Part shown: positions 9,336 to 36,351 of the stretch, one piece after another
How the letters are laid out: the number at the start of each line of letters is the position of its first letter
Position numbering within the stretch: position 1 is the stretch's first letter
From: a virus
Virus record (IMG/VR): IMGVR_UViG_3300033571_029942
Coordinates: 1-36,952 of that record
Reading direction: 5' to 3' (one strand)
DNA length: 36,952 bases
The notes under the pieces: model-generated
Database searches by the model: none
What the model saw: only the letters and a program-made list of their open reading frames with translations
What the model was told of the DNA's origin: nothing
Program-made: the position numbers and the translations under genes

Positions 9336-10541
9336 CTATTTTATTGATTTTTCACCTCTTGAGTTATAGATCCAAAATTCAAAAGAAATCCCTAGATCGA
9401 GACATGCTTGTTTTTTTCTAATATTTATTGAATATGCTGCTTTGTAAGTGTATTCTGACTTAACCTCTATTATTTTATTATCCCCAATCAAATAAATATC
9501 TGGGTAATACTTTCTTTTCTTCCTTTCAGAATCTAAATACCATATTGTACCCGTGTGCGATTCAATCTCTTTATTGGATACAATTATGTCATCTTCCTTA
9601 TATCCTGCATCTAAAAGATCATTTAAAGCAAATCCTTCATACCCTTGTATTTTTTCAACCCTACCTGAAGGGAAAACAAAAATCTTTTTCTTGTATGACG
9701 TGTTTAAAGATTTTTCAAATGAAGGGGTGTAGTGCATAACCTGCTCCACTCCATATTTTTTAAGCATAGATTCTTTAAATTTTTTCTTAAAATCCTCACT
9801 TTGTACATACCAATCCGTACCTCTTTTTCTCCTGTTCGTTTCTTTAGATTTATTCTTTATCTCCTCCGAGCACATACTGGAATTTCCTCCATATTTTAAA
9901 TTATTGGTTATTCTAGATTTTTCTTTTATTTCTGGATTATCTAAAGAGTGCTCAAATCCATATTTTTCTTTGTTTGTTTTTCTTTTCTTGTCCTGTGTTT
10001 CTTTTAGCTTAGTTGGATGACCACCATATTTTTCCTCGAAAGTCTTTTTAACCCTCTCTTTAAAATCTTCAGTTTCTGTATAGAAATCCACTCCATATTT
10101 TTTCCTGTTATTTTCCTTAATCTTATTTAAAGCACCAGGAACCTCCGTTGGATTTGTAGTTCCGTGATTTTTCATCATAGCCTTGTCAGTTTTATCCTTG
10201 TTATATTTTTTATTACAAGATTCAGACATACACGTCCCGTAATAATTAACAGAATTAGTGGGTTTTATCCCATATCTGTCAATTGAAAACTTTGGCTTCT
10301 TTGCAAACATTCTAGGAGAGTCACAATAGGGACACCTCTCAATTTCATAGAACCCAAACCACACATGATAAAATCTCTGTTGAATAGAAATTTTTTCGGG
10401 ATTATAAATTGGATTTAGAAAAGAAGTCAGAGATTTTAATTGTTCAATATCTTCAGAATCCTTTGAAAGATTCCTTATGATAGTTCCAAAAGCTTTACCT
10501 GTCTTAGATCTCCACCCTTCGATTTTTTGTAATATGCACAT
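9336..10541 (-). CDS. Free-standing PD-(D/E)XK endonuclease with KYG repeats (homing-type)
   Basis: Three parts are visible in this 401-residue protein. Four cysteines near the N-terminus (C70-P-Y-C73 and C104-x4-C109) could bind zinc. Residues about 125-285 hold repeated lysine-rich units centred on KYG (NRKKYGVDFY, FEEKYGGHP, NKEKYGFEHS, NLKYGGNSS, LKKYGVEQV), a pattern I associate with phage homing endonucleases, probably DNA-binding. The C-terminus has P347-D348, then E359-V-K361 (YYPDIYLIGDNKIIEVKSEY), a PD-(D/E)XK core. The gene is set between a possible connector gene and the gp25-like gene and has its own hairpin-like leader, as expected of an intruding mobile gene. The target site is not visible. 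It could instead be a repair-type nuclease. Confidence 0.75.
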   Translation of the reverse strand: MCILQKIEGWRSKTGKAFGTIIRNLSKDSEDIEQLKSLTSFLNPIYNPEKISIQQRFYHVWFGFYEIERCPYCDSPRMFAKKPKFSIDRYGIKPTNSVNYYGTCMSESCNKKYNKDKTDKAMMKNHGTTNPTEVPGALNKIKENNRKKYGVDFYTETEDFKERVKKTFEEKYGGHPTKLKETQDKKRKTNKEKYGFEHSLDNPEIKEKSRITNNLKYGGNSSMCSEEIKNKSKETNRRKRGTDWYVQSEDFKKKFKESMLKKYGVEQVMHYTPSFEKSLNTSYKKKIFVFPSGRVEKIQGYEGFALNDLLDAGYKEDDIIVSNKEIESHTGTIWYLDSERKKRKYYPDIYLIGDNKIIEVKSEYTYKAAYSINIRKKQACLDLGISFEFWIYNSRGEKSIK

Positions 10542-10568
10542 TGGATATTTTTAATATTATATATCCAA
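10541..10568 (-). other. Inverted repeat over the nuclease start codon
   Basis: TTGGATAT (10541-10548) and ATATCCAA (10561-10568) form an 8-bp stem with a 12-nt AT loop. It lies at the very 5' end of the nuclease gene, so it could mask translation initiation. T4 homing endonuclease genes are often silenced early by such leader hairpins. Stability would be modest because the stem is AT-rich. Confidence 0.35.
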
Positions 10569-10584
10569 ATATAATGTATATTTT

Positions 10585-11364
10585 TCAATTCCACTGCAAA
10601 AAATAACTTGGAGTGTTCTCAGAATTTATCTGGTTTATTATCTCAGTTTTCTCGTTCTGTCCAAGAGTTTGGATGTTATTATAGTTAATTCTAACACCGC
10701 CAGGGAGGTTATATTCGAATGTCCCAAGTAATCTACCTATATTAATTTTTGCCTCTGCTAGAACGTATCTAACGAACAATTCGTCATCATATAAGCTTTC
10801 TTCTGGAATAGCTATATAAGCTCTAACTCCTACATCAACACCAGTAAAAAGATTCGAAGATGTTCCTCCATCTGTCTGATATGTTCTGTTAGGATCTCTA
10901 CCATTTATGGTTAATTTTTTGGTGTTTTTATTATAATTAAAGGCATAGCTTTCTAAGAGATAAGCCTTTGCAAGATCAAAGAAAGAATAGAGAACCGTTC
11001 TATAAACTAAGTTGTCCCCAACAAAAGGAGAAAGCATAAGCTCAGATCCAAGGAGTTTAGAGTCACTAAAATCTTTGTCTGGGGTTCCTATTAATCCAGA
11101 TCCATTTACCTCTCTGACGTCATAGACAGATACCACACACCCAGGGAGTTGTATTTGTCTCGTTGCTCTAAAAGATGCGGTAGAAAAAAGCTCCCTCCCT
11201 AGTACAAATATTCTATCCTCTACTGCGTATTGGTAGTTGTCGTACATATAGGCCCTAGCACGTTTAATAATTCTTTTGATCTCTTGATCGTTTAGGTTAT
11301 ATGGCAAAGAACAAGAATGTGAAATTTCGTCTTTGACCTCTTGGATTAGTTCTACTTCTGTCAT
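10585..11364 (-). CDS. Putative virion structural protein, possibly connector/neck type
   Basis: This 259-residue soluble protein begins with an acidic helical region (MTEVELIQEVKDEISHSCSL), followed by a basic helix with an NYQYAVED segment and then strands (RQIQLPGCVVSVYDVREV). That arrangement recalls head-tail connector or neck proteins of large myoviruses, but I cannot name the family. It overlaps the end of the amidoligase-like gene by 4 nt (ATGA), so the two are translationally coupled. A 43-nt spacer with the nuclease leader hairpin follows. A structural role is inferred from order and general look only. Confidence 0.5.
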   Translation of the reverse strand: MTEVELIQEVKDEISHSCSLPYNLNDQEIKRIIKRARAYMYDNYQYAVEDRIFVLGRELFSTASFRATRQIQLPGCVVSVYDVREVNGSGLIGTPDKDFSDSKLLGSELMLSPFVGDNLVYRTVLYSFFDLAKAYLLESYAFNYNKNTKKLTINGRDPNRTYQTDGGTSSNLFTGVDVGVRAYIAIPEESLYDDELFVRYVLAEAKINIGRLLGTFEYNLPGGVRINYNNIQTLGQNEKTEIINQINSENTPSYFLQWN

Positions 11365-12812
11365 TGGGGTGGTTCGTTATTTTCTTTAAAGTTGATTCCT
11401 GGAATACCAGAAGGTTTACTGTTATTATCCTTAAATAGAGGATGTTCATGTTTAGGAAAACCGTCGTTTCTGTCTGGAAACGGTCTTTTTCTCATGCTTC
11501 CTTTTAATTTCTTATCATCCTCTGTGTCTCCAATAACTTCGGTTTCCGGTGAAATTGTAGCCAATTTTCCGATGAACCCGGATCTAATTATACCACCAAA
11601 GACTTCACAGTTAATTTCTTTGTCCTTATTATCTACATATGAATCATGGAGAACATTAGTAAACATGATATCAGAAACCATAATTTTAGATGTGTATATT
11701 TCATTAGAAGTGATTAAATCACATTCTTCCATGCTACAATCTCTTAATGTGGAATTAAATATTCTACAATTAAAAAGGTTTCCTGTTATATCAGATTCTA
11801 AAATGTCATAATCTTTTAGAAGATAAGCCTTGTTTGTTTTAACGTCCTTTATTTGGAATTTTCCAAGATTACTGTCATAGTTTACTAATCCTTCTTTAAT
11901 TCCATTCTCTACTATTAAATCATAAAGAACTTCTCTTATGTTTATAAAAAAAGATCTTATGATTTGAGGATCAGATCTGAGGTCTATCATTATAGTAAGA
12001 TGCGGATAGTTTTTTTGAAAGGTTTCCGGATCAGAAAAACTCGAAGCACTCTTGTAAATCTCCTTTAATCCACTCTTTAGAATTTTTAAATCATTGTCAG
12101 TAAAGAAATCATTATATTGTAAAATCTGGAGAGTGAAAGTGATTACGTAATCAATTATCTCCTTTATAGAGGTATACTTTTTTTGATAATCTGTTCCTCC
12201 TAAATATCTAACCTCAAAATATCCTTCTGGAAGTTTAAGAAAATTTATTCCTAGATTTTTTTCTAAAGGAACATCAAATAAATTCTTATCAATAAAAGAA
12301 AGATTGGATGGATCTACAAACTTATTAGAAGGTAATATCCTTTTGATAGATTTAGCATATAAAGAGCCAGATCTTTCGGGAAATCTTCTATAGATTTGAT
12401 TCTCGTCAAACCCCAATACAAATTTTAGAATATTGAGTTTAGTAATTGAAGGAATTTCTGGATAAATTGATGTATCAAAACTAACGCCAAACTGAAATGC
12501 ACATTTTTTATCGGTGTATCCGTTTTGATCTATCCACTTAAGGGTTTTTATTAAAATGGGAATAGCCTCGAAATAAGGAAGAGGACCAGTGACGAGTTCA
12601 ACCATCTTGGATCCTCCAGAGTAATCTGGCTCTAGCTTAAATGTGCTAGGAGTTGGTTTAAAAAAAGAATGATACTTTTTAAAAACTAGAATCTTTTTAC
12701 CTAATACTTTTCCTAATTCGTACGCAATTTGGTTCCTGTTCTCATTACTATAAAATTCAAACTCAAAACCCACTGTGGCAGAGTACAGAAAATCTCTTGA
12801 ACTAATATTCAT
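11361..12812 (-). CDS. Amidoligase-like protein with pentapeptide-like C-terminal region
   Basis: The N-terminal ~300 residues of this 483-residue protein resemble the COOH-NH2 amidoligases of the glutamine-synthetase fold. These features are VGFEFEFY at 14-21 (metal-binding E17 and E19), PDYSG at 62-66, and MVELVTGPL at 70-78 with E72. The family usually also shows G-x-HVHV; here the matching place reads FQFGVSFD, so the HVH motif is missing and activity is uncertain. Residues about 340-420 have a pentapeptide-like rhythm (FNCRIFNSTLRDCSMEECDL), suggesting a right-handed beta-helix. The end is Pro/Asn-rich. The gene is coupled to the following gene by a 4-nt overlap. Its neighbours are virion-type genes, so it might modify or crosslink a protein or peptide during assembly, which is inference. 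Confidence 0.6.
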   Translation of the reverse strand: MNISSRDFLYSATVGFEFEFYSNENRNQIAYELGKVLGKKILVFKKYHSFFKPTPSTFKLEPDYSGGSKMVELVTGPLPYFEAIPILIKTLKWIDQNGYTDKKCAFQFGVSFDTSIYPEIPSITKLNILKFVLGFDENQIYRRFPERSGSLYAKSIKRILPSNKFVDPSNLSFIDKNLFDVPLEKNLGINFLKLPEGYFEVRYLGGTDYQKKYTSIKEIIDYVITFTLQILQYNDFFTDNDLKILKSGLKEIYKSASSFSDPETFQKNYPHLTIMIDLRSDPQIIRSFFINIREVLYDLIVENGIKEGLVNYDSNLGKFQIKDVKTNKAYLLKDYDILESDITGNLFNCRIFNSTLRDCSMEECDLITSNEIYTSKIMVSDIMFTNVLHDSYVDNKDKEINCEVFGGIIRSGFIGKLATISPETEVIGDTEDDKKLKGSMRKRPFPDRNDGFPKHEHPLFKDNNSKPSGIPGINFKENNEPPQ

Positions 12813-12965: not shown

Positions 12966-12997
12966 AGAGTTTTACTTAGATATCTAAGTAAAACTCT
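12966..12997 (-). terminator. Rho-independent-type terminator after the S1-like gene (32-nt perfect palindrome)
   Basis: The two 16-nt arms AGAGTTTTACTTAGAT and ATCTAAGTAAAACTCT are exact reverse complements. On the minus strand the stem is followed directly by a T-run (TTTTTT then ATTT), so it suits termination of the S1-like transcript, whose stop is 28 nt upstream. The stem is AT-rich but long. A 13-nt half of the arm also occurs in the leader of the same gene (14148-14160). Confidence 0.75.
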
Positions 12998-13025
12998 AAT
13001 TCAAAAAACCCATTATGATTAGGTA

Positions 13026-14141
13026 CTAAACCTCAATTAATTGCACTTTTAGTGTGGATGGATCCACGCTAGAGACTGAGCAATTTACCGATTGTCCCTC
13101 CTCATAATCTTTAATAGTGTTAACTAATTTCTCCCTCTCAATAAGTCCTGTCATTCCGTTTTCTAATTTAACAAAAACACCGAAGGTTTTTAATTTAGTT
13201 ACCTCCCCTTTATATATTTTCGTTTCATAAGTTTCGCCTAAAACTTCACCGGAGTTATCCTTAAGCTCTTGGAGATTTTTCATTTTTTGGTTTGGCTCGG
13301 TATGAGAAAGAGTGATTCTTTGTGGATTTTTAATGTCAACAACATAAAAAGATATTGTATCTCCCTGCTTTAAACCTTCTAATTTTTCTTTATTTTTTTC
13401 TTCAAAAGGAATCATTCCTGTAAAAATATCATTCCATTCAACAAAAACACCATTAGCAGAAGTCCCAGTAACAGTTCCCTCATAATTTTCACTAAATGAA
13501 AGTTCCCTAACTTTTCCTGTTATAATCTTTCCTAGATATTTTTTGAAGGAAACTACAAAAATATCCCTTTTTTGATCATACATCTCTATCATAACGTTAA
13601 TCTGTTTTCCAACATAATCTTGGAAATTCATGATTCTGTTTGCAGCTGCAAGACTTCCAGGAAGAAAACATTCAAGACCAGTCAGGTCTACCATAAATCC
13701 TCCGTTGCATACGCTCTTAACTTTTACGGAGAATGCGCAATCTTCATTCTTTATTGCTTTAAATAGTTCCTCTCTCAGGACTTTTTCATATCCTGCAGAA
13801 AGAGATCCATTAAAAGATCCAGTGACATCCTTATACACAACCACATCAATAAGATCTCCTATCTCAGCTTGGATATTGGGGTATCCCATTTTTCTAAGGC
13901 TCTTTTCCTCTTTTTTAAGATTGATAACGATTGACTGTCCAAAGAGAGTTTCCCCAATTAGTGTTCCGTTTTCTTTGTTGTGGATTGTTATTCTAACCTT
14001 AGTAGAGGAATTATCCTGTAGATCTTTTCCTTTGAACCAAGAAGCGCCAAATTCTTCAGGAAGAGAGTCTGAATAAAATTTTTCAAGAGTTTCTCTCTCT
14101 GCTTGTTCGTAATCGTAACAACTGTATTTTCCTTTTTTCAT
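13026..14141 (-). CDS. Phage-encoded protein with four S1/OB modules (bS1-like)
   Basis: This 371-residue protein has successive OB/S1 modules at about residues 48-117 (divergent), 135-200, 217-281 and 306-369. The last is the most typical (KGEVTKLKTFGVFVKLENG, then MTGLIEREKL). The third has YEGTVTGTSANGVFVEW and the second has VKSVCNGGFMVDLTGLECFL. Bacterial S1 has up to six such modules and holds mRNA on the 30S subunit. Phage homologues of bS1 have been reported from metagenomic genomes. It may redirect host ribosomes to AU-rich phage mRNAs that lack Shine-Dalgarno sites, or act as an RNA chaperone, though both are inference. It is alone between two non-coding gaps, with its own terminator, suggesting a separate transcript. 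Confidence 0.85.
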   Translation of the reverse strand: MKKGKYSCYDYEQAERETLEKFYSDSLPEEFGASWFKGKDLQDNSSTKVRITIHNKENGTLIGETLFGQSIVINLKKEEKSLRKMGYPNIQAEIGDLIDVVVYKDVTGSFNGSLSAGYEKVLREELFKAIKNEDCAFSVKVKSVCNGGFMVDLTGLECFLPGSLAAANRIMNFQDYVGKQINVMIEMYDQKRDIFVVSFKKYLGKIITGKVRELSFSENYEGTVTGTSANGVFVEWNDIFTGMIPFEEKNKEKLEGLKQGDTISFYVVDIKNPQRITLSHTEPNQKMKNLQELKDNSGEVLGETYETKIYKGEVTKLKTFGVFVKLENGMTGLIEREKLVNTIKDYEEGQSVNCSVSSVDPSTLKVQLIEV

Positions 14142-14147
14142 TTTTGT

Positions 14148-14160
14148 AGAGTTTTACTTA
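14148..14160 (-). repeat. 13-nt leader element repeated in the terminator of the same gene
   Basis: AGAGTTTTACTTA (plus strand) here is identical to 12966-12978 and, inverted, to 12985-12997. It sits 7 nt upstream of the S1-like start codon. In the RNA the leader copy could pair with one arm of the terminator hairpin or serve as a common binding site, for example for the encoded RNA-binding protein. Pure chance in AT-rich DNA is possible but not likely over so short a distance. Confidence 0.5.
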
Positions 14161-14198
14161 TTTTGTATCCAAAGATTGTGGAAAGATTTCCAATTTTA

Positions 14199-17100
14199 TT
14201 ATATTTTTTTGATGCTAAAAGCTTTTTGTAGTTCATCAGGAAGCTCTGGTAATGGATAAACAGGATCAGCAGCACCAAAGAAGAATTTAAAGAGGCCAGA
14301 GACATCTGCAGCAGATCTTAAAAATTCATCTAAATAGACCACATAGAGTGTATTATTTAAACTCATTCTTCTCCATGCTGGGTGGTCATCTCTGAGACGC
14401 AGTGGGTTAATTAAATTAATTACATTTCTTCCCAAAAGAACAGCTATTGGCCACGGAACATTAGAAAGGAGGGAGGAAGCCAATTTGACAACCGGCTGGA
14501 TTATTTCTTCCGGAAGGGGACTTTTTGGGGATCCCAATAAATATTGCCACAAAAGACTCTGTGGTAACCTTGCTATAGGAGGAACCCCTAATCCAACAGA
14601 AACTTGCTCTACCATATCGGTTGGCCTGGCCAAGGGCAAAACGGGAACCTGGGTAAGTTCTAAAAATGGTGGAATAGCACCTTCTGGGTTAAGTGTATCT
14701 CTGACTAAATTCCTGGCCATTTTCTGTATATCCTGTGGCTGTAGATTGATGAATTTTGGTGAATCAATGTCATTGATCTCTGGCATTAATTGTTCTAAAA
14801 TTCCACCATTTAAAACAGTTCCCACTGCTTCTTTAACAAAACCCTTTATCACTGAACCGGGTATAGTTATTTGTGGTATTCCACCTAAACCAGGACTCTG
14901 AGAAAGTTGGTCTTGTTTAGGAGGAAATAATGTGGTCAGCTCAAAAGCTGAAATAGCATTACCAAACCCGCCGCTTAGAGATTCTAGACAGCACAAAGGA
15001 CCTTCTGGATGGGGAAATCTAGAAATTAGTGGTTCTTCTAAATCCAGTGGTCTTTCTAGCTCGAATGGACCCCTTCTCGATAAACCCAGTTTTTTAGAGA
15101 TTAATTTTTTGAGGTCCTTAACCCTAATAACCATTTGTGGGGTTTCTCCATCATATCTCACATATCTAGCAAAATCTTGTGGAGTATATTGTGCTGAAGA
15201 CATTCCGTCCATAAGTCTTAGATAAATCTCTTCGATTATAGGATTGGAAACCTTGGGAAGATCTAAAGGGGAAGGAGCAGAATTGGTAATGCTTAGTGGT
15301 GGAAATGAAAATGTCCCTCCGTAATCGCAAAACGAGAGTGATGAAAATGACCCACCTTTTATTTTTTCCAACACGGAAAATTTGTTCCCCCTCATAAGGA
15401 TATGAGTTATAACCAGAGAAGTGGATCTTATCCCGTCTACCAATTCGCCGAACTCCACCCCGTTCATACTACGTGGATCTTTATTCACACGAAGGAAAAT
15501 TTTACTTTGATTTGATAATTCAGAATTTTCAGAAGAATATTGCGAAGGCGTAGGAATTTTTAGAAGTTTTAGAATCTCTTTAATTTCCTCCTTTATGTTA
15601 ACATATTCAGGGCACTTTAAAGGAACAAAACTAGCCTTCATGTCTTTGAGATCCAAGAAAGATTTGACAATACCAGGGATATCAGTTTTTAGTTTATCTT
15701 TGTCCTTAGGAAAAACTATAGATTTTGGCTCAGGTATACCCGTTTCTATATAATCCTTAATCGTTGTGATTAGAGCATTTTTTCTTTCCTGTATTAAGCC
15801 TCTAAGAGCTTCTTTTTGTGCATTTACATCCGGCTCTGGAACATCCAAAAGAGCTGCCTGTTTTTGATAATCTTTAATTTTACCATCTATCTCTGCTTTT
15901 AAAGCTATCTCCCTGTCCTGTAAATTCCTTATAGCATTCATATTTCCTGGGGCAGGAACACTATCAAATATCTTGGTAAAATTTGTTTGAAGATCGCTAA
16001 GAATTCTTTCTGGTGAATCTATATCATCTAATCCAAAGTTAGGTAACGGGATTAGTTTATCCGGGATTCCAAAAGTTAGTGCCTGTTTAATTTGTTCCAG
16101 AGGATCGGGGAGGGGTGGATCTGATCTTCTTGGAATAAATCTTGGTCCTCTAATTCCCGTTAAAAATAAAGAGCTTCCTGTGATAAATTCTTTAAGATAC
16201 ACGAGAGGAGTAGGCATAAATCCTCCTATGAGAGGAATAAAAATAACTATCATTCCTAATCCTAACGGTAAAGGCAATATTATAGGAGGAATAACATTCC
16301 AGATCATAGGAAGAGGAATCCTAATATAAGGTTGTCCATCAATAGGATTCGGAATAGGTATAGGAATAAAAGCAGGTGGAAGATAGCCAACTGGCCAATA
16401 TTTTAAACCAAAACGAACAGAAGGACCTTGAGCAAGAAAAAATGAAGGATCCTCTATTGGTGGTATTCCGTTAGGATAAGGTAATAATCCAACTGTCGTA
16501 GCATGTTCACAGAATTTTTTCCACCAGCAAGTTTGATAAATCGTAGGACAATCTGAAGCAGGAGGGAGCGAAGTTAAAAAATCACCAAAATTAAAATCAG
16601 ATCCAGCATCTCCACAACAAGCAGGTGGGCAATTTTCCTGATCTGATATTTCTCCTTCTCCTCCACAATTACAACTTTGAAATTTAGTTCTAACTGACTC
16701 TCCTGAGGTCTCTTCTTCTTTTTCTTCTCTCTTCTGAGCTGCAATAAGAAGTAACTCCTCTATTTGATCTTTTCTCCTTTTAATTTCAAAATATGAATCA
16801 AATATAGAGACAGTAACCTCGTCAAAAATAGGTAGAGTTTCGGCTAATCCTTGTGCAGCATTTTTTGATTGTTCCTTTATGTCTCTGATAGCAGGATCTA
16901 CAAAACTCTGCTTATTTTGGTTATACTTTTCACTCCACTTAGGTTTAAAATTTCCCCAGAAGTCTCTAAATTGTTGGTTGGGTTCTCCGTCTCCAATATA
17001 GCTAGATGGTCTTAATTTACTAGGATCTCTGGCATCGTTGTCACCTCTTTCTGTTGGATTAAAAAATAACCAAGTTGAAGCTGATTTCTCTATGAGTTGC

Positions 17101-19283
17101 CCGTACAAGACGCCATGGGAAGAAACCATTTCATTTATTATATCCTGCTTAGAATCTGATGTGTTGATAACTCTTTCAATAAAAGAATAAAAATCTGTAA
17201 CATCGTCTTGACCTGTTCTAATATTTACAAAATCATAAAAATTAGGTACTGGTGTAAGATAATCTGATGGGTAACCTATTAAAAGACCGCCATTAGCCCC
17301 ATATTCATTTCCTATTCTGATTTTTTCAATATCGGGCTCAAGAACTTGCTCTATAGGATTAGTGGATTCCCCAGTAATAGAAAGCTTTGCTGGTTTTTCA
17401 ACTAGCTTATAAGGTAAGGGAAATCCAAAATCTGCAGGATAAGCAAATGTAAATTTTAAAAGCCCTGTTGTGAAATCCACTGAAATGTCGGTGAACCTAG
17501 CAGAAAAATCTTTGACTTTTTTTATAAATTCAAATCCCCTTCCATCTTGTCCGATCTGGAGTCCGATAGGGAGAGGAGCAACTTCAAATACCCTCTGTAC
17601 CGCAAGTAGGTAAAGGCTAAACGTCGGATTGAATCCAGCAAAAAGAGGATTTAGATTTTCTGGATCTATCTCTTCTGGTTGAATTCCCTTTTTTTGAGCC
17701 AGGGACTCAATATAAGATTGTCTAACAGAAAAAAGATCTTCGAGGTCTTCTTCTAATAAATTTATAAAGTTATTTTTTATTAGAATATACCTAATCTCCT
17801 CTATTTTTTCAGTAAATAAACTTATAGCCTCATTTATGGGATATGTGTTATTTTCTTGGTTGATATTAATAAAACTATTGTTTCCGTTCGTGGATTGTGT
17901 GAAAAAATCTAGAAGTTGTGTTCCAGAAAATTCAGTGTCTGTTAAAGATATGCTAAAAAGATCGCTATTAAAAATAGGATTATTCTGGACGAAAATGTTC
18001 TGTGAATTTTTTAGATCTAGTTTTTGTTTTTGTATTTCTTGCCCTTTATTTAATATCAGGTCGTTATAGAGTAATATTTGAAAAACTAGATCAACAGGTT
18101 TTTCCTGTCCTTCTTGGGGAACACCTATCCTTTGTCTCCAAAAATCAACTAGATCCTTTTGAAAATCATGAATAATATCTATATGATAAAGTATTTCCTG
18201 CAGGTCCATTTCTATTTTTTGCCATCTCCCTAATTCCTGAGTGGATTTTTGGATCTCGTTGACTTTATCTAAAGCAGAATCTAAACAAGCCTGTATAGTA
18301 CTAGGATCAATTTGAGCAGGCTCTGGGTCAGGTTCGTTTGGATTAAGACCGGAAAAATCAAAAGGTGGAGGATCACAAAAATCATCAAATGTTTCTAAAA
18401 CATCAGCAGAAGTTTGAATGACATCACCAGTAACAGGATCTTCTGCATACCCAATAAAACAGTCAGGATCTATTGCAGGATCATCTCCGTCAGGAAAAAA
18501 GTTAGCATCATAATCTTCTATTCTAGAAGTTAAGTTCCTATCTACTAGATCTGAATTTTCTTTTTCAGTATCACACCCTTTAGAATTTTGATTAGCTTTC
18601 TGTATTATCTCATTGATCTTATTGATAGCCTCCTGATTTGTTTTCTTTTGACTATCCAATTTAAAATAAACAGGTGTTGTGCCTGCCATTATAACCTCAA
18701 GAGGAAGAGGAAATCCCAGAATATTTAAGCTCCTTTTTTTCTTAACTGAAGAGTTGCTGGGTTTTCCAAGAACTAAAGGATCTAAGTTATCAAAAATTTC
18801 TTCATTAATTTCTAACAAGAAAGATGGATCATTAGCTTCTAAAAATTCTATTACCTCCTTAGAAGCTGGGCAATTTTTTCTTTCGATGATATTAGTTTTT
18901 ATTCCAATATCTTCGGGGTTTATGTTTCTTGGTTTATCAACCCCTTCTCTAATGGCTTTTTCGTAAATAGATGGTTTTTTAACTTTTGTTATCTCCAATA
19001 GGATCAAAGCATATAAAGAATCTCCCTCACACAAACAAGCTAATTCATCAACCCTAGAAGCAGATATAGAAAGAGGTTTTGGTTGTAAACTAGAAAAAAG
19101 ATTGTCTACCTCTTTTTTTAGGTCGGATTGTATTTTTTCTGCCCCCTCTTTACTTTGAGGATCCACATAAGGCTTGTTGAGATCTATATCCGGTGCTATC
19201 GTCTTAATTACAAAATCTGACGTCAGCTCTGTCGGATCTACACTAAGGAGTTTGTCTATTCTGCTTTCAAAATTATCTGCCAT
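14199..19283 (-). CDS. 1694-residue virion-type protein, unrecognised
   Basis: This very large protein lies directly after the spike gene, with a 2-nt gap, inside the tail/baseplate block, so a virion role is likely. It is acidic and proline-rich. It has an eight-cysteine stretch at about residues 864-927 (CNCGG, CPPACCG, DCPT, TCWWKKFC), which could bind zinc or form disulfides. After it comes a proline-rich hydrophobic region at about 955-1035 (PPIILPLPLGLGMIVIFIPL). That region resembles a membrane-inserting segment and is rare in baseplate proteins. Helical segments follow (about 1090-1180). The upstream sequence GGAGGTTAAAT before the ATG is one of the few good ribosome sites here, though it also encodes Gly-Gly of the previous gene. 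It could be a hub-associated or DNA-ejection protein, but no family is recognised. Confidence 0.7.
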   Translation of the reverse strand: MADNFESRIDKLLSVDPTELTSDFVIKTIAPDIDLNKPYVDPQSKEGAEKIQSDLKKEVDNLFSSLQPKPLSISASRVDELACLCEGDSLYALILLEITKVKKPSIYEKAIREGVDKPRNINPEDIGIKTNIIERKNCPASKEVIEFLEANDPSFLLEINEEIFDNLDPLVLGKPSNSSVKKKRSLNILGFPLPLEVIMAGTTPVYFKLDSQKKTNQEAINKINEIIQKANQNSKGCDTEKENSDLVDRNLTSRIEDYDANFFPDGDDPAIDPDCFIGYAEDPVTGDVIQTSADVLETFDDFCDPPPFDFSGLNPNEPDPEPAQIDPSTIQACLDSALDKVNEIQKSTQELGRWQKIEMDLQEILYHIDIIHDFQKDLVDFWRQRIGVPQEGQEKPVDLVFQILLYNDLILNKGQEIQKQKLDLKNSQNIFVQNNPIFNSDLFSISLTDTEFSGTQLLDFFTQSTNGNNSFININQENNTYPINEAISLFTEKIEEIRYILIKNNFINLLEEDLEDLFSVRQSYIESLAQKKGIQPEEIDPENLNPLFAGFNPTFSLYLLAVQRVFEVAPLPIGLQIGQDGRGFEFIKKVKDFSARFTDISVDFTTGLLKFTFAYPADFGFPLPYKLVEKPAKLSITGESTNPIEQVLEPDIEKIRIGNEYGANGGLLIGYPSDYLTPVPNFYDFVNIRTGQDDVTDFYSFIERVINTSDSKQDIINEMVSSHGVLYGQLIEKSASTWLFFNPTERGDNDARDPSKLRPSSYIGDGEPNQQFRDFWGNFKPKWSEKYNQNKQSFVDPAIRDIKEQSKNAAQGLAETLPIFDEVTVSIFDSYFEIKRRKDQIEELLLIAAQKREEKEEETSGESVRTKFQSCNCGGEGEISDQENCPPACCGDAGSDFNFGDFLTSLPPASDCPTIYQTCWWKKFCEHATTVGLLPYPNGIPPIEDPSFFLAQGPSVRFGLKYWPVGYLPPAFIPIPIPNPIDGQPYIRIPLPMIWNVIPPIILPLPLGLGMIVIFIPLIGGFMPTPLVYLKEFITGSSLFLTGIRGPRFIPRRSDPPLPDPLEQIKQALTFGIPDKLIPLPNFGLDDIDSPERILSDLQTNFTKIFDSVPAPGNMNAIRNLQDREIALKAEIDGKIKDYQKQAALLDVPEPDVNAQKEALRGLIQERKNALITTIKDYIETGIPEPKSIVFPKDKDKLKTDIPGIVKSFLDLKDMKASFVPLKCPEYVNIKEEIKEILKLLKIPTPSQYSSENSELSNQSKIFLRVNKDPRSMNGVEFGELVDGIRSTSLVITHILMRGNKFSVLEKIKGGSFSSLSFCDYGGTFSFPPLSITNSAPSPLDLPKVSNPIIEEIYLRLMDGMSSAQYTPQDFARYVRYDGETPQMVIRVKDLKKLISKKLGLSRRGPFELERPLDLEEPLISRFPHPEGPLCCLESLSGGFGNAISAFELTTLFPPKQDQLSQSPGLGGIPQITIPGSVIKGFVKEAVGTVLNGGILEQLMPEINDIDSPKFINLQPQDIQKMARNLVRDTLNPEGAIPPFLELTQVPVLPLARPTDMVEQVSVGLGVPPIARLPQSLLWQYLLGSPKSPLPEEIIQPVVKLASSLLSNVPWPIAVLLGRNVINLINPLRLRDDHPAWRRMSLNNTLYVVYLDEFLRSAADVSGLFKFFFGAADPVYPLPELPDELQKAFSIKKI

Positions 19284-19285
19284 AT

Positions 19286-20152
19286 TTAACCTCCAGTTGC
19301 TCCAGTAGGTCCTAAAGAGACCGGAAAGTTATTTTCTGCAGGAACACTAGGCACTTCGGGGAAGTTCTCTCTTGTTACCCTAACAGTTTGACTCGTGGCT
19401 AATTGCTCAAAACTAGAAGCCAGAGTCGACATAACCCCTGGAGTGGAAGGAAGTTTTGTATCTACAGCTATTGCTAATTTTTTTAAAAAGTCCCAGAGAG
19501 GTTCAGCACAAACAGCAGAAAAGAGGGGTGAATGTCCCAGATTAGTGGTTTTTCCATCCATCCAAACTTCCTCAGATGAATTCTTGATCCTAGTTATAGC
19601 AGTGTTTTCTATTTCTTGGTCTGCATATTTAGTTATTTTTCCTCCCTTTAATTCTATAGAGGAAGTTTCGTCTGCGTGGGTGATTAGAATAGAATTATCG
19701 TTTCTTATAATGATCTTAGATTCTTTTAGATCGATCACAAGACCCTTTTCAACAGTATAGTATATTTTTAACTGTTCTATACCATCATAAATCAGAGAAT
19801 GAGCTCCATCATAACTTCTTGATATCTCGTCTATTAAATCCGGTGAAAGCTCTTGAACTGCTTTATACTCCGGACTATAATAATTACCATTATTAAATTG
19901 AACATGAACTACAGATCCGAGTTTGGGAACTGACATTCTACCAGATCCTCCGCCCAGACCAAAAGACATATCAAATCTTTGGTATGCCCATGGTAAATCA
20001 GCATCTGGAATATCATCAAATAACCCAAAAACTTTAACCTTGGCTCTTCCCCTAAATTCGGGGTCTTTATTATCTACAACCACACCCAAATAGTGTGTGA
20101 TTTCAGCATTAGATTCTTTTAATCTTTTCGAATTTACTACAGTCATATCCAA
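19286..20152 (-). CDS. gp5-like baseplate spike protein (OB-fold, no lysozyme domain)
   Basis: This 288-residue protein has the N-terminal OB-fold typical of gp5/VgrG spikes, with GRAKVKVFGLFDDIPDADLP followed by WAYQ and, further on, GSVVHVQFNNGNYYSPEY. The middle has short strand repeats (DLKESKIIIRNDNSILITHA, then SIELKGGKITKYADQEI), consistent with a triple beta-helix needle. Unlike T4 gp5 (575 residues) there is no lysozyme domain. The C-terminus ends in a Gly-rich tail (GPTGATGG). The neighbouring hub-like genes fit a central puncturing device. The start is ATG at 20152, 5 nt after the stop of the repeat protein. Confidence 0.85.
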   Translation of the reverse strand: MDMTVVNSKRLKESNAEITHYLGVVVDNKDPEFRGRAKVKVFGLFDDIPDADLPWAYQRFDMSFGLGGGSGRMSVPKLGSVVHVQFNNGNYYSPEYKAVQELSPDLIDEISRSYDGAHSLIYDGIEQLKIYYTVEKGLVIDLKESKIIIRNDNSILITHADETSSIELKGGKITKYADQEIENTAITRIKNSSEEVWMDGKTTNLGHSPLFSAVCAEPLWDFLKKLAIAVDTKLPSTPGVMSTLASSFEQLATSQTVRVTRENFPEVPSVPAENNFPVSLGPTGATGG

Positions 20153-20157
20153 TATTT

Positions 20158-22839
20158 TTATAGATTATCATTCTGAGAAGTTTCTTGTGAATTGGTGTTT
20201 GGATAGACTCTTCCGATTCTTAGAACGTCGTTACTCGTTGTTGTTTGGTATTCGTCTGAATTTATCGAGGGATAAACTCTGGAGGGAAGACCCAAATCTG
20301 GTCCATCCGATGTTTGATAGATATCTTCTACGGGTTCATCATAAACCCTACCAACCAGACCAAGATCTTCTCCGGGAACTCCGGGGTATTCATCGCCGCC
20401 TGGATTTTTGTATTCTCTGTCTGGTAAACCTAGATCGGATCCTTCAGATGTTGGGTAGACGTCTTCATTGGGTTCATTATAAACTCTTCCAAGAACCCCT
20501 AGATCTAAACCTGGTACCCCTGGATATTCGTCTCCCTGTGCACCAGTATACTGTCTAGCAGGAAGTCCAAGATCTGGTCCAGAAGAAGTTGGATATAAAT
20601 CTACTGAAGGATCTGAATAAATTCTATTAGGAGCTCCGAGTTCTGCTCCAGGAACATCTGGATATTGATCATCATTATTACCAGGATAAGTTCTATTAGG
20701 TAGGCCTAAATCTGCCCCGGGAACATCTGGATATTGGTCGTCATTTAGACTAGGATAAACCCTTCCTGGAACCCCCAACTCTGCTCCAGGAACATCTGGA
20801 TATTGATCATCATTATTAACAGGGTAAGTTCTATTAGGTAGGCCTAAATCTGCCCCCGGAACATCAGCATATTGGTCCCCTCCGGGTGGAGGATAAACCC
20901 TTCCTGGAACCCCCAACTCTGCTCCAGGAACATTGTTGTATTGATCGTCATTATTAGAAGGGTAAATTCTATTAGGTAGACCTAAATCTGTACCAGGAAC
21001 ATCCTGATATTGATCTCCCCCAGGGGGAGGATAAACTCTTCCAGGAACTCCAAGATCCGATCCGGGAGTGTTTCCGTATTGGTCATCATTGTTAACAGGA
21101 TATGTTCTATCAGGTAAACCAAGATCCGAACCAGGAACGTTTCCATAAACGTCTGTAGCAGTTGGTGTTCCGGGTTGACCTGAACCTGGTAATACGTTAC
21201 CTAAGTTTTCTGGAGTGGGTTCTGGTACACCTAAATAAACATCGTCATTTATCGCAGGATATGCTCTTTCTCCTGGTCCTCCTAATCCCTGAGTCTGTGG
21301 CCTGGTATCACTAAAAGGTGTAGGGGCTCCTCCGTTAATTAATCCAGATAGACCTTGAACACTCTGTGCTCCTTGCTGGAGATTTGAAAGTTGGAATCCA
21401 TAGATGTTTCCTAGTAACTCTCCCTCTACTATAGACACACCCTGATTTTTTAAATCTGCAACGGTGTTAGTAATAAAATCAGAAGCTAATTGTGCAAAAA
21501 ATCCTGCAGAATCAGCTCCCTCAGTAGGAAATTTCAGACCTTGTGTGGAAACATAATCTAAAGAATTGTACGGAGAGTTTGGTCCTCCCCAAATATCAGC
21601 TAAAACCATTTGTTGAATATTGTTATCCTTCTTAACAGTATCTGCCAATTGGTTAAATTGTATTTTATAATCTTTTACTCTTCCTACATGAATTTTAAAT
21701 TTAGTTGAAACTTGTTGTCCCCCCTTGTTATCAATAGTTCCAAAAGAAGGGTACGTCTCGTCAAAATCAAATTCGCATTGGTCAAGTTTATAAATCCAGG
21801 CATAAGGCATCATATCATAAGATCCCACCTTATCTGCTCCTATATTTTGAGAATTTGTTGATTTTTGTAAAAGACCCGCTGCTTCGTCTAGTAATCCAGT
21901 TTGACTATTAAAACTATCTAAAAAGTTAGCAGCTTGTGCAACAGATCCTATAGAAAAAGGATTTAAAATATCATTAATTCCATAAGTTAATTGTATATTT
22001 CGTATTTCGGTAATAACCAAATACATTCTAAATTTTCGGAGGTTTTCGGGAAGCATTATCCTATGATGTGTATAATCATAAATAGCTTTTCTATAAAGTT
22101 CTGCAATAGCAGAAAGTCTCATGTCAATAGATTCTAAACAATCTATAGTTAATGTACCTGCTCTTCTTGGTGCGCTTCCTTTTTTGTGATAGTTTTGTAT
22201 ATCAACCTTTAAAAGTGTTTCCAATCCAGAAAGGCTTTGAAAATAATATGGGCAATTTCTATTGATGTGATCCAATCCATTTTTAAAAGCCTCTATCATC
22301 TGGGATCTTTTATCTGATCTTCTTTTTAAAAACTCTTGTGCCCCGACATAAGCTAAAGGTTGGTGCACAGGAAAAGCACCAGTATTAATCATTCCATTTA
22401 ATTTGAACTTACTTCCGTAGAAAAAATCAGTGTCGGTACCAAATCCTCCCGCTGAGGCAGGATCAGTAAGTTGTTGTACTGTTGTTGGGTTTGGAATTCC
22501 TCCTGTAGGACCGGCCTGATTCGAAGCGACTTGCTCTTGAACTCTTTTAGAAAATGCTGCTTCGTAATCTGATTCTGTGAGTGATCCATCAGAAGATCTC
22601 CTAAAAAGTGGAGAAATAGGTAAAAAAGTACCCTCTTCGTCAAGAGAAGAAGTGTCACCAAAATCAAAAATAAATTTAAAATAAAGGTATGTGGGATCTT
22701 CTTTTTTCCCGTGCTTTGTGGTCGATATTCCCTTTAGAAACTTATCCCTCTGAAAATCTATTTTTCTCTGTAGTGCATCTCCAGTAGGGATTAATCTATT
22801 CCTAAGTCCGCCTCCAAAATCTGATATAAAATCTGCCAT
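20158..22839 (-). CDS. Tail-tube/hub-like protein with fourteen 23-residue C-terminal repeats
   Basis: Residues 1 to about 470 of this 893-residue protein look like a tail-tube or tube-cap type protein of large myoviruses, with PYYFQSLSGLETLL (197-210), IDCLESIDMRLSA (232-244) and MLPENLRKFRMYL (262-274). That resemblance is from memory. A Gln/Gly/Pro-rich linker follows. Residues 563-884 are fourteen tandem units of 23 residues, consensus D-x-Y-x-x-V-P-G-x-D/E-L-G-L/V-P-x-R-x-Y-P-x-x-x-x. Odd and even units differ (NRTYP-NND versus GRVYPPPGG), so the array grew as 46-residue pairs. Nine residues (QETSQNDNL) follow it. The repeats may form an extended arm on the tail. The gene sits between the hub and spike genes. 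Confidence 0.75.
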   Translation of the reverse strand: MADFISDFGGGLRNRLIPTGDALQRKIDFQRDKFLKGISTTKHGKKEDPTYLYFKFIFDFGDTSSLDEEGTFLPISPLFRRSSDGSLTESDYEAAFSKRVQEQVASNQAGPTGGIPNPTTVQQLTDPASAGGFGTDTDFFYGSKFKLNGMINTGAFPVHQPLAYVGAQEFLKRRSDKRSQMIEAFKNGLDHINRNCPYYFQSLSGLETLLKVDIQNYHKKGSAPRRAGTLTIDCLESIDMRLSAIAELYRKAIYDYTHHRIMLPENLRKFRMYLVITEIRNIQLTYGINDILNPFSIGSVAQAANFLDSFNSQTGLLDEAAGLLQKSTNSQNIGADKVGSYDMMPYAWIYKLDQCEFDFDETYPSFGTIDNKGGQQVSTKFKIHVGRVKDYKIQFNQLADTVKKDNNIQQMVLADIWGGPNSPYNSLDYVSTQGLKFPTEGADSAGFFAQLASDFITNTVADLKNQGVSIVEGELLGNIYGFQLSNLQQGAQSVQGLSGLINGGAPTPFSDTRPQTQGLGGPGERAYPAINDDVYLGVPEPTPENLGNVLPGSGQPGTPTATDVYGNVPGSDLGLPDRTYPVNNDDQYGNTPGSDLGVPGRVYPPPGGDQYQDVPGTDLGLPNRIYPSNNDDQYNNVPGAELGVPGRVYPPPGGDQYADVPGADLGLPNRTYPVNNDDQYPDVPGAELGVPGRVYPSLNDDQYPDVPGADLGLPNRTYPGNNDDQYPDVPGAELGAPNRIYSDPSVDLYPTSSGPDLGLPARQYTGAQGDEYPGVPGLDLGVLGRVYNEPNEDVYPTSEGSDLGLPDREYKNPGGDEYPGVPGEDLGLVGRVYDEPVEDIYQTSDGPDLGLPSRVYPSINSDEYQTTTSNDVLRIGRVYPNTNSQETSQNDNL
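20188..21153 (-). repeat. Fourteen tandem 69-bp coding repeats
   Basis: Exactly 966 bp, or 14 x 69 bp, in frame with no spacers. The central units (4-8) are the most alike, for example DQYPDVPGAELGVPGRVYP and DQYPDVPGADLGLPNRTYP. The units at each end are more diverged, with the last (DEYQTTTSNDVLRIGRVYP) the most degraded. Near-identical neighbours at DNA level suggest recent duplication, and copy number may vary among relatives. Confidence 0.9.
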
Positions 22840-27456: not shown

Positions 27457-28003
27457 TTTGTTCTGTTTTTTTGATAAATAAATCTTTGAAACATTTAATG
27501 AAAAGAGCAGAAACTAAAGCATCGTCTATTTCTAATGCTTCAGAAACACTTATCAGTTCAAATTTTGAATCTTCTTCGTCTTGTGACCCGTCTGTTTCTT
27601 TTTCGTTTGCAACAAGCGAAGTGATATTAACTGCAAAACATGGATTAGGATTAACAACTAATTTAGAAGTATAAATAGTTCCCAAGAACTTCCATCTTTT
27701 AAGATCAGTTACTTCGAACCCAGATTCTTCTTTTAATTCTCTAACCGCAGTCTGAAAAATGTTATCGTCGTCATCATCAGGGGTTCCAGTAATTAATGTT
27801 TTTGTCATGCCTCCTGCTCTAGAATCTGAAATCTCGTTCAATATTCCTATCTCAATAGGAATTTTTTCATCATCTTGGGTATACGGAAGAATAATAACTC
27901 CTGGATTAATTTGCTTAACGAATAGTCTGTTGTCGATTTCAACAACCTCAATATTCTTCTTCTTGTGTAGAGATGTTTCCTCTCGTTTTTCTAATGGTTC
28001 CAT
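27443..28003 (-). CDS. Nudix hydrolase
   Basis: The Nudix core RELKEESGF is intact at residues 88-96 of this 186-residue protein, which places the catalytic glutamates at 89, 92 and 93. The preceding glycine (G73) is one residue further away than in the strict G-x5-E-x7-REUxEExGU pattern, and a run of five Asp sits where the E is expected. I start at ATG 28003, not at an upstream ATG (28078), because the longer form would run 130 nt into the preceding gene and adds a hydrophobic head not typical of the family. Nudix enzymes cleave nucleoside-diphosphate-linked compounds (nucleotide sugars, NAD, dinucleotides). The substrate cannot be told. Confidence 0.85.
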   Translation of the reverse strand: MEPLEKREETSLHKKKNIEVVEIDNRLFVKQINPGVIILPYTQDDEKIPIEIGILNEISDSRAGGMTKTLITGTPDDDDDNIFQTAVRELKEESGFEVTDLKRWKFLGTIYTSKLVVNPNPCFAVNITSLVANEKETDGSQDEEDSKFELISVSEALEIDDALVSALFIKCFKDLFIKKTEQNEIA

Positions 28004-28553
28004 CACCCTTATATATCTCTTTAATTTGATTACGCAAGCTCTGCTTAACCAACTCAATATCAAGATCTTTAACAACAAACTCTATAATTTCCTCTTCTGC
28101 GTCATCAAAAGAACCGCTAAGGACACTATACAAGCTTTTAGTTGGAAGATTAAGCTTTAATTTTATCCCAACTTCTATCCAGTTTGGTTTTTGCTTTTCC
28201 AGTAGGGAAACAATGGGATTAGATTCCGTATATTGAATGGATCTCGTTTCTTCCGATAACATGACGTTTCTACCGGGACTTGTAGGAGTATTATAAACAG
28301 GAGATGCGGGCAAAGCCTTATTTTGTTGCAACTGGGAAGGTTCCAGCCTAAGCATAAATTCATCTAAAAGAATGTAATTTATCCTAGATCCGTCTTTAAA
28401 ATTAATCCAGATCGTTCCTGTTGTGGGTTCTTTAAAAACCTTATCATATTCACAAACAGTGCCTGAGTTTTCTCCTTTAGTCCACTTGTATACGAAATAT
28501 TTTAATTCCGAATCGAGTTGTTCTAAATCTATTTCGGTTTGAAAATTATCCAT
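27948..28553 (-). CDS. Hypothetical protein, about 201 residues, unrecognised
   Basis: I start at ATG 28553, four nt after the preceding stop. An upstream ATG at 28592 would overlap that gene by 35 nt. The N-terminal half is strand-rich (ELKYFVYKWTKGENSGTVCE, then TTGTIWINFKDGSRINYILL), followed by a Pro/Asn/Ser-rich linker and a C-terminal helical part (DDAEEEIIEFVVKDLDIELV). Its end overlaps the Nudix gene by 56 nt. No catalytic motif, signal peptide or membrane segment is visible. Confidence 0.55.
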   Translation of the reverse strand: MDNFQTEIDLEQLDSELKYFVYKWTKGENSGTVCEYDKVFKEPTTGTIWINFKDGSRINYILLDEFMLRLEPSQLQQNKALPASPVYNTPTSPGRNVMLSEETRSIQYTESNPIVSLLEKQKPNWIEVGIKLKLNLPTKSLYSVLSGSFDDAEEEIIEFVVKDLDIELVKQSLRNQIKEIYKGDGTIRKTRGNISTQEEEY

Positions 28554-28557
28554 TTTT

Positions 28558-28809
28558 TTATTTCTTCTTATTTTTCTGAGAAGGTTCCACATCTTCTTCT
28601 ATTTTTATTTCTGTGTAGCCTTCCTGTCTAAGTTTAGAAATCCACGACTCTATATCTTCTCGTATTATCCACGTGTCATTGTATTTTTTACTCTTAAGGC
28701 TATTTACAATCACTATATTATCCAAAACTGGATCACTGTGAAACTTTAATTCCACCGCAGAAGTTCCTTTAGGATTAGAGCATATTATTTTTTGTCCTTT
28801 TGTGATCAT
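28558..28809 (-). CDS. 83-residue protein, unrecognised
   Basis: A small alpha/beta protein with a basic Lys-rich tail (EPSQKNKKK). An exact TATAAATA (28816-28823) lies upstream of the ATG. It opens the group of small genes that ends with the TTG-started protein. No recognised domain. Confidence 0.6.
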   Translation of the reverse strand: MITKGQKIICSNPKGTSAVELKFHSDPVLDNIVIVNSLKSKKYNDTWIIREDIESWISKLRQEGYTEIKIEEDVEPSQKNKKK

Positions 28810-28815
28810 AATTTA

Positions 28816-28823
28816 TATTTATA
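28816..28823 (-). promoter_or_regulatory. Exact T4-late-type box (TATAAATA)
   Basis: TATAAATA on the minus strand, ending 6 nt before the ATG at 28809 and lying in the 29-nt gap after the cassette. This is the T4 late promoter -10 consensus. At this spacing the transcript would start at or near the ATG. Chance is possible in AT-rich DNA. Confidence 0.45.
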
Positions 28824-28838
28824 GATAAAAAGTAGAAA

Positions 28839-29462
28839 TTATTTCAATCCCAATATAAAATTAAAATCTCGGTCGAATTCTTCTACGGCGATAAGATTAA
28901 GAATTTGTTTTTTATTTTCTTTGAAGAAATCCCAATTAAGAGCATCGTTCGGAAAAACATCAAGTGTTTCCGAGGGAGATTTCCTAATTATACCTACTCC
29001 CCAATCTGTATCTATGGTGGTTAGACAAAGATCTGCCTTATAAAGCCTTAATTTTATCAGGGCTAAATAAACCGTCCCGTTCCAGTCACCATTAGCTGGC
29101 GGGCCATATACAGGAGTCTCTCCTGCATGAAATTTTGTAGGAGGATTACAATCGTGTAGTAAAATAACCCCATCCTCACTTAAAAATTTTAAAGAGTTTT
29201 CTATGTCCCGATAGACCTGTTCATCTAGGTGTAACCCATCTATAAAAACACAATCAAATTTAGTGTCTTCGTTTAGAGAAGCAAAAAAATCATCAGAAGA
29301 CATTTCATGAGTTGTAGATTCGCTAATCTTTACTGGGTCCACTCCTAATTTATTTTCACAGGCAATCTTCTGAAAACATTCTCCGCCCCTGACCCCTATC
29401 TCTAAATAATTTTTATAACCCTTAGAGACTATAATTTTGTTAATAATATCGTATCTTTTCAT
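28839..29462 (-). CDS. Class I SAM-dependent methyltransferase
   Basis: Residues about 15-30 have the SAM-binding glycine loop (YLEIGVRGGECF). The later DCVFIDGLHLDEQVYRDIEN and GVILLHDCNPPTKFHAGETP are typical of the Methyltransf_24-type group found with sugar genes. The start chosen is ATG 29462, which overlaps the preceding TGA as ATGA; ATG 29480 in the same frame is possible. Length is about 207 residues, which suits the family. The substrate could be a sugar hydroxyl or carboxyl or a small metabolite. It is the last gene of the glycan cassette. Confidence 0.75.
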   Translation of the reverse strand: MKRYDIINKIIVSKGYKNYLEIGVRGGECFQKIACENKLGVDPVKISESTTHEMSSDDFFASLNEDTKFDCVFIDGLHLDEQVYRDIENSLKFLSEDGVILLHDCNPPTKFHAGETPVYGPPANGDWNGTVYLALIKLRLYKADLCLTTIDTDWGVGIIRKSPSETLDVFPNDALNWDFFKENKKQILNLIAVEEFDRDFNFILGLK

Positions 29463-30178: not shown

Positions 30179-30185
30179 ATTCTCT

Positions 30186-33318: not shown

Positions 33319-33321
33319 AGT

Positions 33322-34029: not shown

Positions 34030-34038
34030 AATCTGATT

Positions 34039-36347: not shown

Positions 36348-36351
36348 AACT

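What the first reader, a model, noticed from the sequence alone, without database searches (positions are those of the whole stretch)
13026..14141. Phage-borne S1-like protein with four OB modules inside the tail block
A protein related to ribosomal protein bS1 sits on its own transcript between spike-proximal and connector-type genes. Few genes here have a Shine-Dalgarno sequence and most leaders are A/U-rich. S1 is the 30S protein that holds such leaders, so a virus-made S1 could favour phage mRNA. It lacks at least two of the six modules of E. coli S1, and its first module is divergent, so it may bind RNA without docking to the ribosome.
Basis: partly seen in the sequence, partly recalled or inferred. 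Interest (0 to 1): 0.75.

Follow-up and report, generated by a model that had tools for sequence, protein, structure and literature searches.

The report
Phage-made copy of ribosomal S1
A large T4-like virus, almost certainly of Bacteroidota bacteria, carries a trimmed, fast-evolved relative of the ribosomal protein that feeds messenger RNA into the ribosome; it belongs to a widespread family of such viral genes and still has most of what looks like the ribosome-docking end.

Summary
On the minus strand at 13026-14141 lies a 371-aa protein with four S1-type OB barrels and an N-terminal helix. It corresponds to domains D1-D4 of bS1 and lacks D5-D6.

It is not an oddity. IMG/VR holds at least 598 relatives. 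All sampled viral copies form one clade, under strong purifying selection. In the window's own lineage the gene is a fixed member of the baseplate/neck cluster.

The host phylum is almost certainly Bacteroidota. The phage N-terminal helix matches that of Bacteroidota bS1, the segment that docks E. coli bS1 on uS2. So 'may not dock' is weakened, although the second anchor (E. coli Lys43) is gone in this lineage. 'Own transcript' and 'few SD sequences, hence S1' do not hold: relatives' S1 abuts or overlaps the next gene, and S1-less Tenacibaculum phages and Bacteroidia hosts are equally SD-less.

Best explanation (0.5): a late, substitutable bS1 that docks on the Bacteroidota 30S and biases A-rich, SD-less initiation towards phage mRNA. 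Ribosome binding is inferred, not shown.

S1-domain proteins in huge phages were already reported (Al-Shayeb 2020): a new member of a known kind. New here: family structure, docking-end retention, and host phylum as confounder of the published S1/SD correlation.

The parts
13026..14141 (-). Viral S1-like protein, 371 aa, four OB (S1) domains corresponding to bS1 D1-D4
14061..14111 (-). Residues 11-27, YEQAERETLEKFYSDSL: N-terminal helix equivalent to the uS2-docking helix of bS1 (L19 = E. coli F5, Y23 = F9)
   Evidence: AF2 helix 13-26; MAFFT with cellular bS1; PSSM scan
13794..14012 (-). OB1 (residues 44-116), divergent; E. coli Lys43 position is Gly68, followed by invariant Gln69
13533..13739 (-). 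OB2 (residues 135-203), the most conserved domain; keeps aromatic mRNA-pocket positions F149 and F159 (E. coli F120, F130)
   Evidence: pocket defined in PMC10123108
13299..13493 (-). OB3 (residues 217-281)
13029..13226 (-). OB4 (residues 306-371), best single Pfam S1 match
12966..12997 (-). Perfect 16-bp palindrome followed by T-run: terminator-like, directly after the S1 gene
14142..14198 (-). 57-bp leader between the upstream tail gene and S1: A-rich, no SD (aSD duplex energy -1.0)
11361..12812 (-). Downstream gene, 483 aa: amidoligase / glutamine-synthetase-like fold with C-terminal pentapeptide-like region; abuts or overlaps S1 in many relatives
14199..19283 (-). Upstream gene, 1694 aa, unknown tail-cluster protein
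19286..20152 (-). Baseplate hub (gp5-like OB, Phage_base_V)
10585..11364 (-). Neck / head-tail adaptor protein; isolate relatives are nearly all phages of Bacteroidota

Best explanation
This is a virus-encoded bS1 paralogue, a trimmed D1-D4 form, in a T4-like large phage of Bacteroidota. It most likely docks on the host 30S platform through its N-terminal helix and OB1, in place of or in competition with host bS1. OB2-OB4 would then hold the A-rich, SD-less leader of phage mRNA at the mRNA exit site. The gene lies in the late structural cluster, so it is probably made when late mRNAs must outcompete host mRNAs. Shown here: homology, domain make-up, retained docking helix, synteny, selection, host phylum (indirect). 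Inferred: ribosome binding, replacement of host bS1, preference for phage mRNA, late timing.
For: Collinear with bS1 D1-D4 by sequence and fold. The N-terminal 17-mer helix is of Bacteroidota bS1 type: a PSSM from 30 phage helices scores 17 of 28 Bacteroidota bS1 above the best of 78,437 background windows, at the same place before OB1, and 0 of 5 other bS1. MAFFT independently aligns E. coli F5 and F9 with L/M and Y/M of the phages. OB2 is the most conserved domain, with F149 (F/Y) and F159 (invariant) at the mRNA-pocket positions F120 and F130 (PMC10123108). dN/dS 0.06-0.11. In Bacteroidota SD pairing does not work and bS1 is the proposed recruiter (PMC3155529). In F. johnsoniae added bS1 doubled initiation on an SD-less mRNA (PMC9976891). 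On the ribosome bS1 D1 anchors and D4 reaches mRNA -12 to -15 (PMC6847099), so D1-D4 is the set that would span anchor to leader; leaders of this contig are A-rich there (0.58-0.62 A at -14 to -11).
Against: Lys43, which enters the uS2 zinc pocket, is Gly in 23 of 24 sampled phages of this lineage, although it is Lys in 28 of 28 Bacteroidota and 5 of 6 other huge phages. OB1 and OB4 are weakly conserved, and the Lak phage copy ends with little or no OB4. NCBIfam rpsA equivalog cut-offs are far from met (92.5 bits against 577). Phage and host leaders look alike, so preference for phage mRNA is not explained by leader composition. No bS21 was found in eight larger relatives, although they may be fragments.
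Confidence: 0.5

Rival explanations
1. Off-ribosome RNA-binding protein: it coats or stabilises A-rich phage mRNA, melts structure or serves as cofactor of a phage or host RNase or RNA polymerase, as host S1 does for T4 RegB, without stable ribosome docking.
For: All OB domains are S1-type; Lys43 contact lost; OB1 diverged; Al-Shayeb 2020 leaves 'on or off the ribosome' open.
Against: The docking-type N-terminal helix is conserved across the family and resembles that of Bacteroidota bS1; no catalytic partner domain.
Confidence: 0.22
2. Host shut-off factor: it occupies the bS1 site or binds host bS1 and poisons host initiation, with phage mRNA escaping for another reason.
For: Inference from anatomy: a D1-D4 form that keeps the anchor helix but lacks D5-D6 could act as a dominant negative.
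Against: Phage and host leaders are indistinguishable in SD content and A content, so the phage would poison itself; location among late genes.
Confidence: 0.13
3. Virion or tail-assembly protein that uses OB folds structurally, hence its fixed place in the baseplate cluster.
For: Strict synteny hub-(1694 aa)-S1-p483-neck-gp25-wedge in all close relatives whose contig reaches far enough.
Against: In a Lak phage it lies by tRNA-His guanylyltransferase, and in a Bacteroidetes-bin phage contig near GroEL and ribonucleotide reductase; OB2 aromatic RNA-pocket residues are conserved; no PHROG tail match.
Confidence: 0.1

Closest known systems
S1-domain ('rpS1') proteins of huge phages (Al-Shayeb et al. 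2020, PMC7162821; LR745206/LR7565xx and Lak genomes)
   Same: Homologous along the length, about 360-390 aa, four OB domains (OB4 lost or degenerate in Lak); carriers lack SD; one viral clade
   Different: The window lineage has lost the Lys43 equivalent, has the invariant CFLPGSLAAAN and GQ motifs, and sits in the baseplate cluster next to an amidoligase-like gene
Cellular bS1 (rpsA) of Bacteroidota
   Same: N-terminal helix motif Y-x(3)-ER-x(2)-L-x(3)-Y-x(3)-F; FDW/FNW extension in one phage sub-lineage; D1-D4 order
   Different: Bacteroidota bS1 is about 580-800 aa with six OB domains and has Lys43; the phage form is about 370 aa and forms its own clade on a long stem
bS1 of Microcystis jumbo phage PhiMa05 (PMC13157829)
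   Same: Phage-encoded, about 359 aa, several OB domains
   Different: PhiMa05 S1 is close to cellular bS1 (290 bits to an rpsA model against about 90 for the window), groups with cellular bS1 and stands beside bL21/bL27 genes: a separate acquisition

Membership tests
Cellular bS1 (rpsA) equivalog | Score above curated rpsA equivalog cut-offs | tested here: not met
   TIGR00717 92.5 of 577 bits; PRK06676 90.1 of 368
Cellular bS1 (rpsA) equivalog | Tandem S1-type OB domains in D1-Dn order | tested here: met
   D1-D4 collinear; D5-D6 absent
Cellular bS1 (rpsA) equivalog | N-terminal uS2-docking helix (E. coli F5/F9) | tested here: met
   By sequence only: L19/Y23, Bacteroidota-type helix
Cellular bS1 (rpsA) equivalog | Lys43 for the uS2 zinc pocket | tested here: not met
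   Gly68; Gly in 23/24 of the lineage, Lys in 28/28 Bacteroidota
Cellular bS1 (rpsA) equivalog | Association with the 30S subunit | not testable with these tools
   Needs biochemistry
Huge-phage S1-domain proteins (Al-Shayeb 2020) | Homologous S1-domain protein in a phage genome, one clade with the published ones | tested here: met
   tblastn to LR745206, LR756500-504, Lak; tree support 100/100 for all viral rows
Huge-phage S1-domain proteins (Al-Shayeb 2020) | Carrier genome over 200 kb | tested here: inconclusive
   Window and its 59,939-bp parent contig are fragments; relatives reach 219 and 289 kb
Huge-phage S1-domain proteins (Al-Shayeb 2020) | Carrier genes rarely have SD | tested here: met
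   3/45 = chance; but S1-less phages of Bacteroidota are the same
Baseplate OB proteins (gp5-like) | Phage_base_V or PHROG tail match | tested here: not met
   No PHROG hit; the only OB families matched are S1 type
RNase or PNPase S1-domain enzymes | Catalytic domain next to the S1 domain | tested here: not met
   Whole 371 aa is OB domains and helices

The most novel reading that the evidence does not exclude
A whole lineage of large Bacteroidota phages swaps its own four-domain S1 into the host 30S late in infection. It keeps the Bacteroidota-specific docking helix but drops the Lys43 anchor, so that it can displace host bS1 and steer SD-independent initiation: a virus-made ribosomal subunit swap in bacteria whose start-site selection is thought to rest on S1.
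Probability: 0.3. Interest if true: 0.75.

Novelty: new member of a known kind. Interest (0 to 1): 0.5.

Why it matters
Bacteroidota choose start sites without SD pairing, and bS1 is the proposed but untested selector. A compact viral S1 that still has the docking helix gives a natural tool to test that. It also shows that the published link between phage S1 and missing SD sequences can be explained by host phylum, because S1-less phages of Bacteroidota are equally SD-less.

Tried and rejected
SD deficit as evidence for S1 function: rejected after comparing S1-less relatives and host loci. A separate transcript: not supported by relatives. A short promoter-like element (GWATATAW) was below chance. 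The 14-bp identity between the S1 leader and the terminator arm (14147-14160 and 12985-12998) is not visible in the nearest relative's leader and was left unexplained. bS21 partner search in eight larger relatives: none. Phage S1 as sister of Bacteroidota bS1 by tree: not recovered, but not rejected (AU p=0.277, long branches). The genome-contig scan found one relative, on a phage-like contig in a Bacteroidetes bin. One search repeated by mistake and added nothing.

Full report
What is there. The window (36,952 bp) is wholly contained, at 100% identity, in a 59,939-bp IMG/VR contig that also carries a T4-type major capsid protein (Gp23). On the minus strand, 13026-14141 encodes 371 aa. Pfam gives S1 domains at E=8.8e-20. 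phmmer against the PDB gives E. coli bS1, collinear over the end of D1 to D4. AlphaFold2 on 33 family members predicts an N-terminal helix (13-26) and four OB barrels (mean pLDDT 81, pTM 0.54). Foldseek's best PDB match is bS1 in a 30S mRNA-delivery complex, and the best viral matches are 'S1' proteins of other uncultured phages.

A viral family. Relatives of similar size (about 360-390 aa) occur in the LR7452/LR7565 huge phages of 462-735 kb and in Lak phages of Prevotella. In a tree of OB2-OB3, all 30 viral rows of this family are one side of a branch with 100/100 support, apart from 24 Bacteroidota bS1, the gammaproteobacterial bS1 and PhiMa05 S1. The root is unknown, and grouping with Bacteroidota is neither recovered nor rejected (AU p=0.277). 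Pairwise dN/dS is 0.06-0.11 in five pairs. OB2 is the most conserved domain (25 of 69 columns invariant) and OB1 and OB4 the least.

Place in the genome. In the close relatives fetched, the gene order hub, (1694-aa protein), S1, p483, neck, [HNH], gp25, wedge, p80, large tail protein is kept wherever the contig reaches. These are the 80 best-scoring hits and include near-duplicates, so this is a statement about the lineage, not a random sample. In many relatives the S1 ORF abuts the next ORF or overlaps it by a few to a few tens of nucleotides; start codons were chosen mechanically. In the window there are 213 bp between them, with a perfect 16-bp palindrome and T-run right after S1. The gene is therefore better read as the end of the upstream tail operon than as a transcript of its own. 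In a Lak phage and in the phage-like contig of a Bacteroidetes bin the S1 gene lies elsewhere, which speaks against a tail-structural role.

Host. Relatives of the neck protein among annotated phage records are phages of Prevotella, Tenacibaculum and Chryseobacterium, plus unassigned huge phages and Sphingomonas phage PAU. The only cellular-genome hit of the S1 family is in a Bacteroidetes bin. Leaders are A-rich and SD-less, as in Bacteroidota. The host phylum is thus very probably Bacteroidota, but this is indirect.

The docking end. In E. coli, bS1 anchors to uS2 through F5/F9 of an N-terminal helix and Lys43 of OB1, and OB2 F120/F130/K117 contact the mRNA (PMC10123108). In a joint alignment, F5/F9 fall on L19/Y23 of the window protein. 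The helix itself (YEQAERETLEKFYSDSL; relatives such as YDTAERERLEAMYNGTF) matches Bacteroidota bS1 (YSDAERVKLEEEYAGTF, YAEAERLKYDKVYDNTF). A PSSM built only from phage helices scores 17 of 28 Bacteroidota bS1 above the maximum of 78,437 background windows, directly before OB1, and 0 of 5 other bS1; the outgroup is small. A second phage sub-lineage also has the FDW/FNW extension seen in several Bacteroidia bS1. Lys43 is Lys in 28/28 Bacteroidota and 5/6 other huge phages but Gly in 23/24 of this lineage. OB2 keeps aromatic residues at the F120 and F130 positions in all viral rows.

The SD argument. SD-core motifs precede 2/43 genes of the parent contig, 7/156 and 15/135 in its two groups of relatives (the latter above its shuffled rate, z=2.8), and 3/100 in the LR huge phages, but also only 1/34 in PTm1 and 0/46 in pT24. 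These are phages of Bacteroidota in which a profile search found no S1; T4 has 18/29. PAU, also without S1, has 5/49. Bacteroidia host loci with the FxW-type bS1 have 5/64. Missing SD therefore follows the host phylum. Al-Shayeb et al. noted that huge phages with S1 rarely have SD and took it as a hint of a role in initiation (PMC7162821); these comparisons suggest the correlation is confounded by host.

Mechanism. In Bacteroidota the 16S tail is sequestered and bS1 is the proposed selector of start sites; bS1 D4 can reach mRNA -12 to -15; added bS1 doubled initiation on one SD-less mRNA. A four-domain S1 keeps the span from anchor to leader. I therefore favour a substitutable late bS1 (0.5), with off-ribosome RNA binding (0.22), host shut-off (0.13) and a virion role (0.1) as rivals. 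Ribosome binding, timing and mRNA preference are inferred.

Novelty. The kind is known: S1-domain proteins of huge phages (2020) and a separate phage bS1 in PhiMa05 (2026). What I did not find in the searched papers is the family's unity and size, the Bacteroidota-type docking helix with loss of Lys43, the fixed place beside an amidoligase-like gene, and the host-phylum confounder.

Noticed in passing
window 11361-12812 (-): Gene after S1: Amidoligase_2-like (8 of 16 relatives match, best 8.1e-5), with weak Foldseek similarity to glutamine synthetase and pentapeptide-repeat proteins; also present in the LR huge phages that carry S1, mostly not adjacent there.
   Followed up: partly
L014 9006-10484 (-) (parent contig): RimK ATP-grasp domain fused to a Zn-protease-like domain, next to a very acidic repeat protein (10556-11221); RimK modifies bS6 in E. 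coli, and bS6 is part of the anti-SD pocket in Bacteroidota (RimK function from general knowledge).
   Followed up: no
window 27900-36924: By eye, a block of sugar and methyltransferase genes (GDP-sugar enzymes, glycosyltransferases, SAM methyltransferases, a PhyH-like oxygenase, an acyltransferase): a possible glycan or capsule-decoration island inside the phage.
   Followed up: no
window 20617-21116: Tandem repeats of 69/138 bp within the 893-aa tail-cluster protein; motif like DLGLPNRTYPxNNDDQYPDVPG.
   Followed up: no
window 9336-10541 (-): Homing-endonuclease-like gene (DUF7487) between neck and gp25 that comes and goes, sometimes on the other strand, among relatives.
   Followed up: partly
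window 14147-14160 and 12985-12998: 14-bp exact inverted match between the S1 leader and the terminator arm; not evident in the closest relative's leader. Unexplained.
   Followed up: partly
L096 and L009: S1 lies near GroEL and ribonucleotide reductase in the Bacteroidetes-bin phage contig, and near a tRNA-His guanylyltransferase in a Lak phage.
   Followed up: partly
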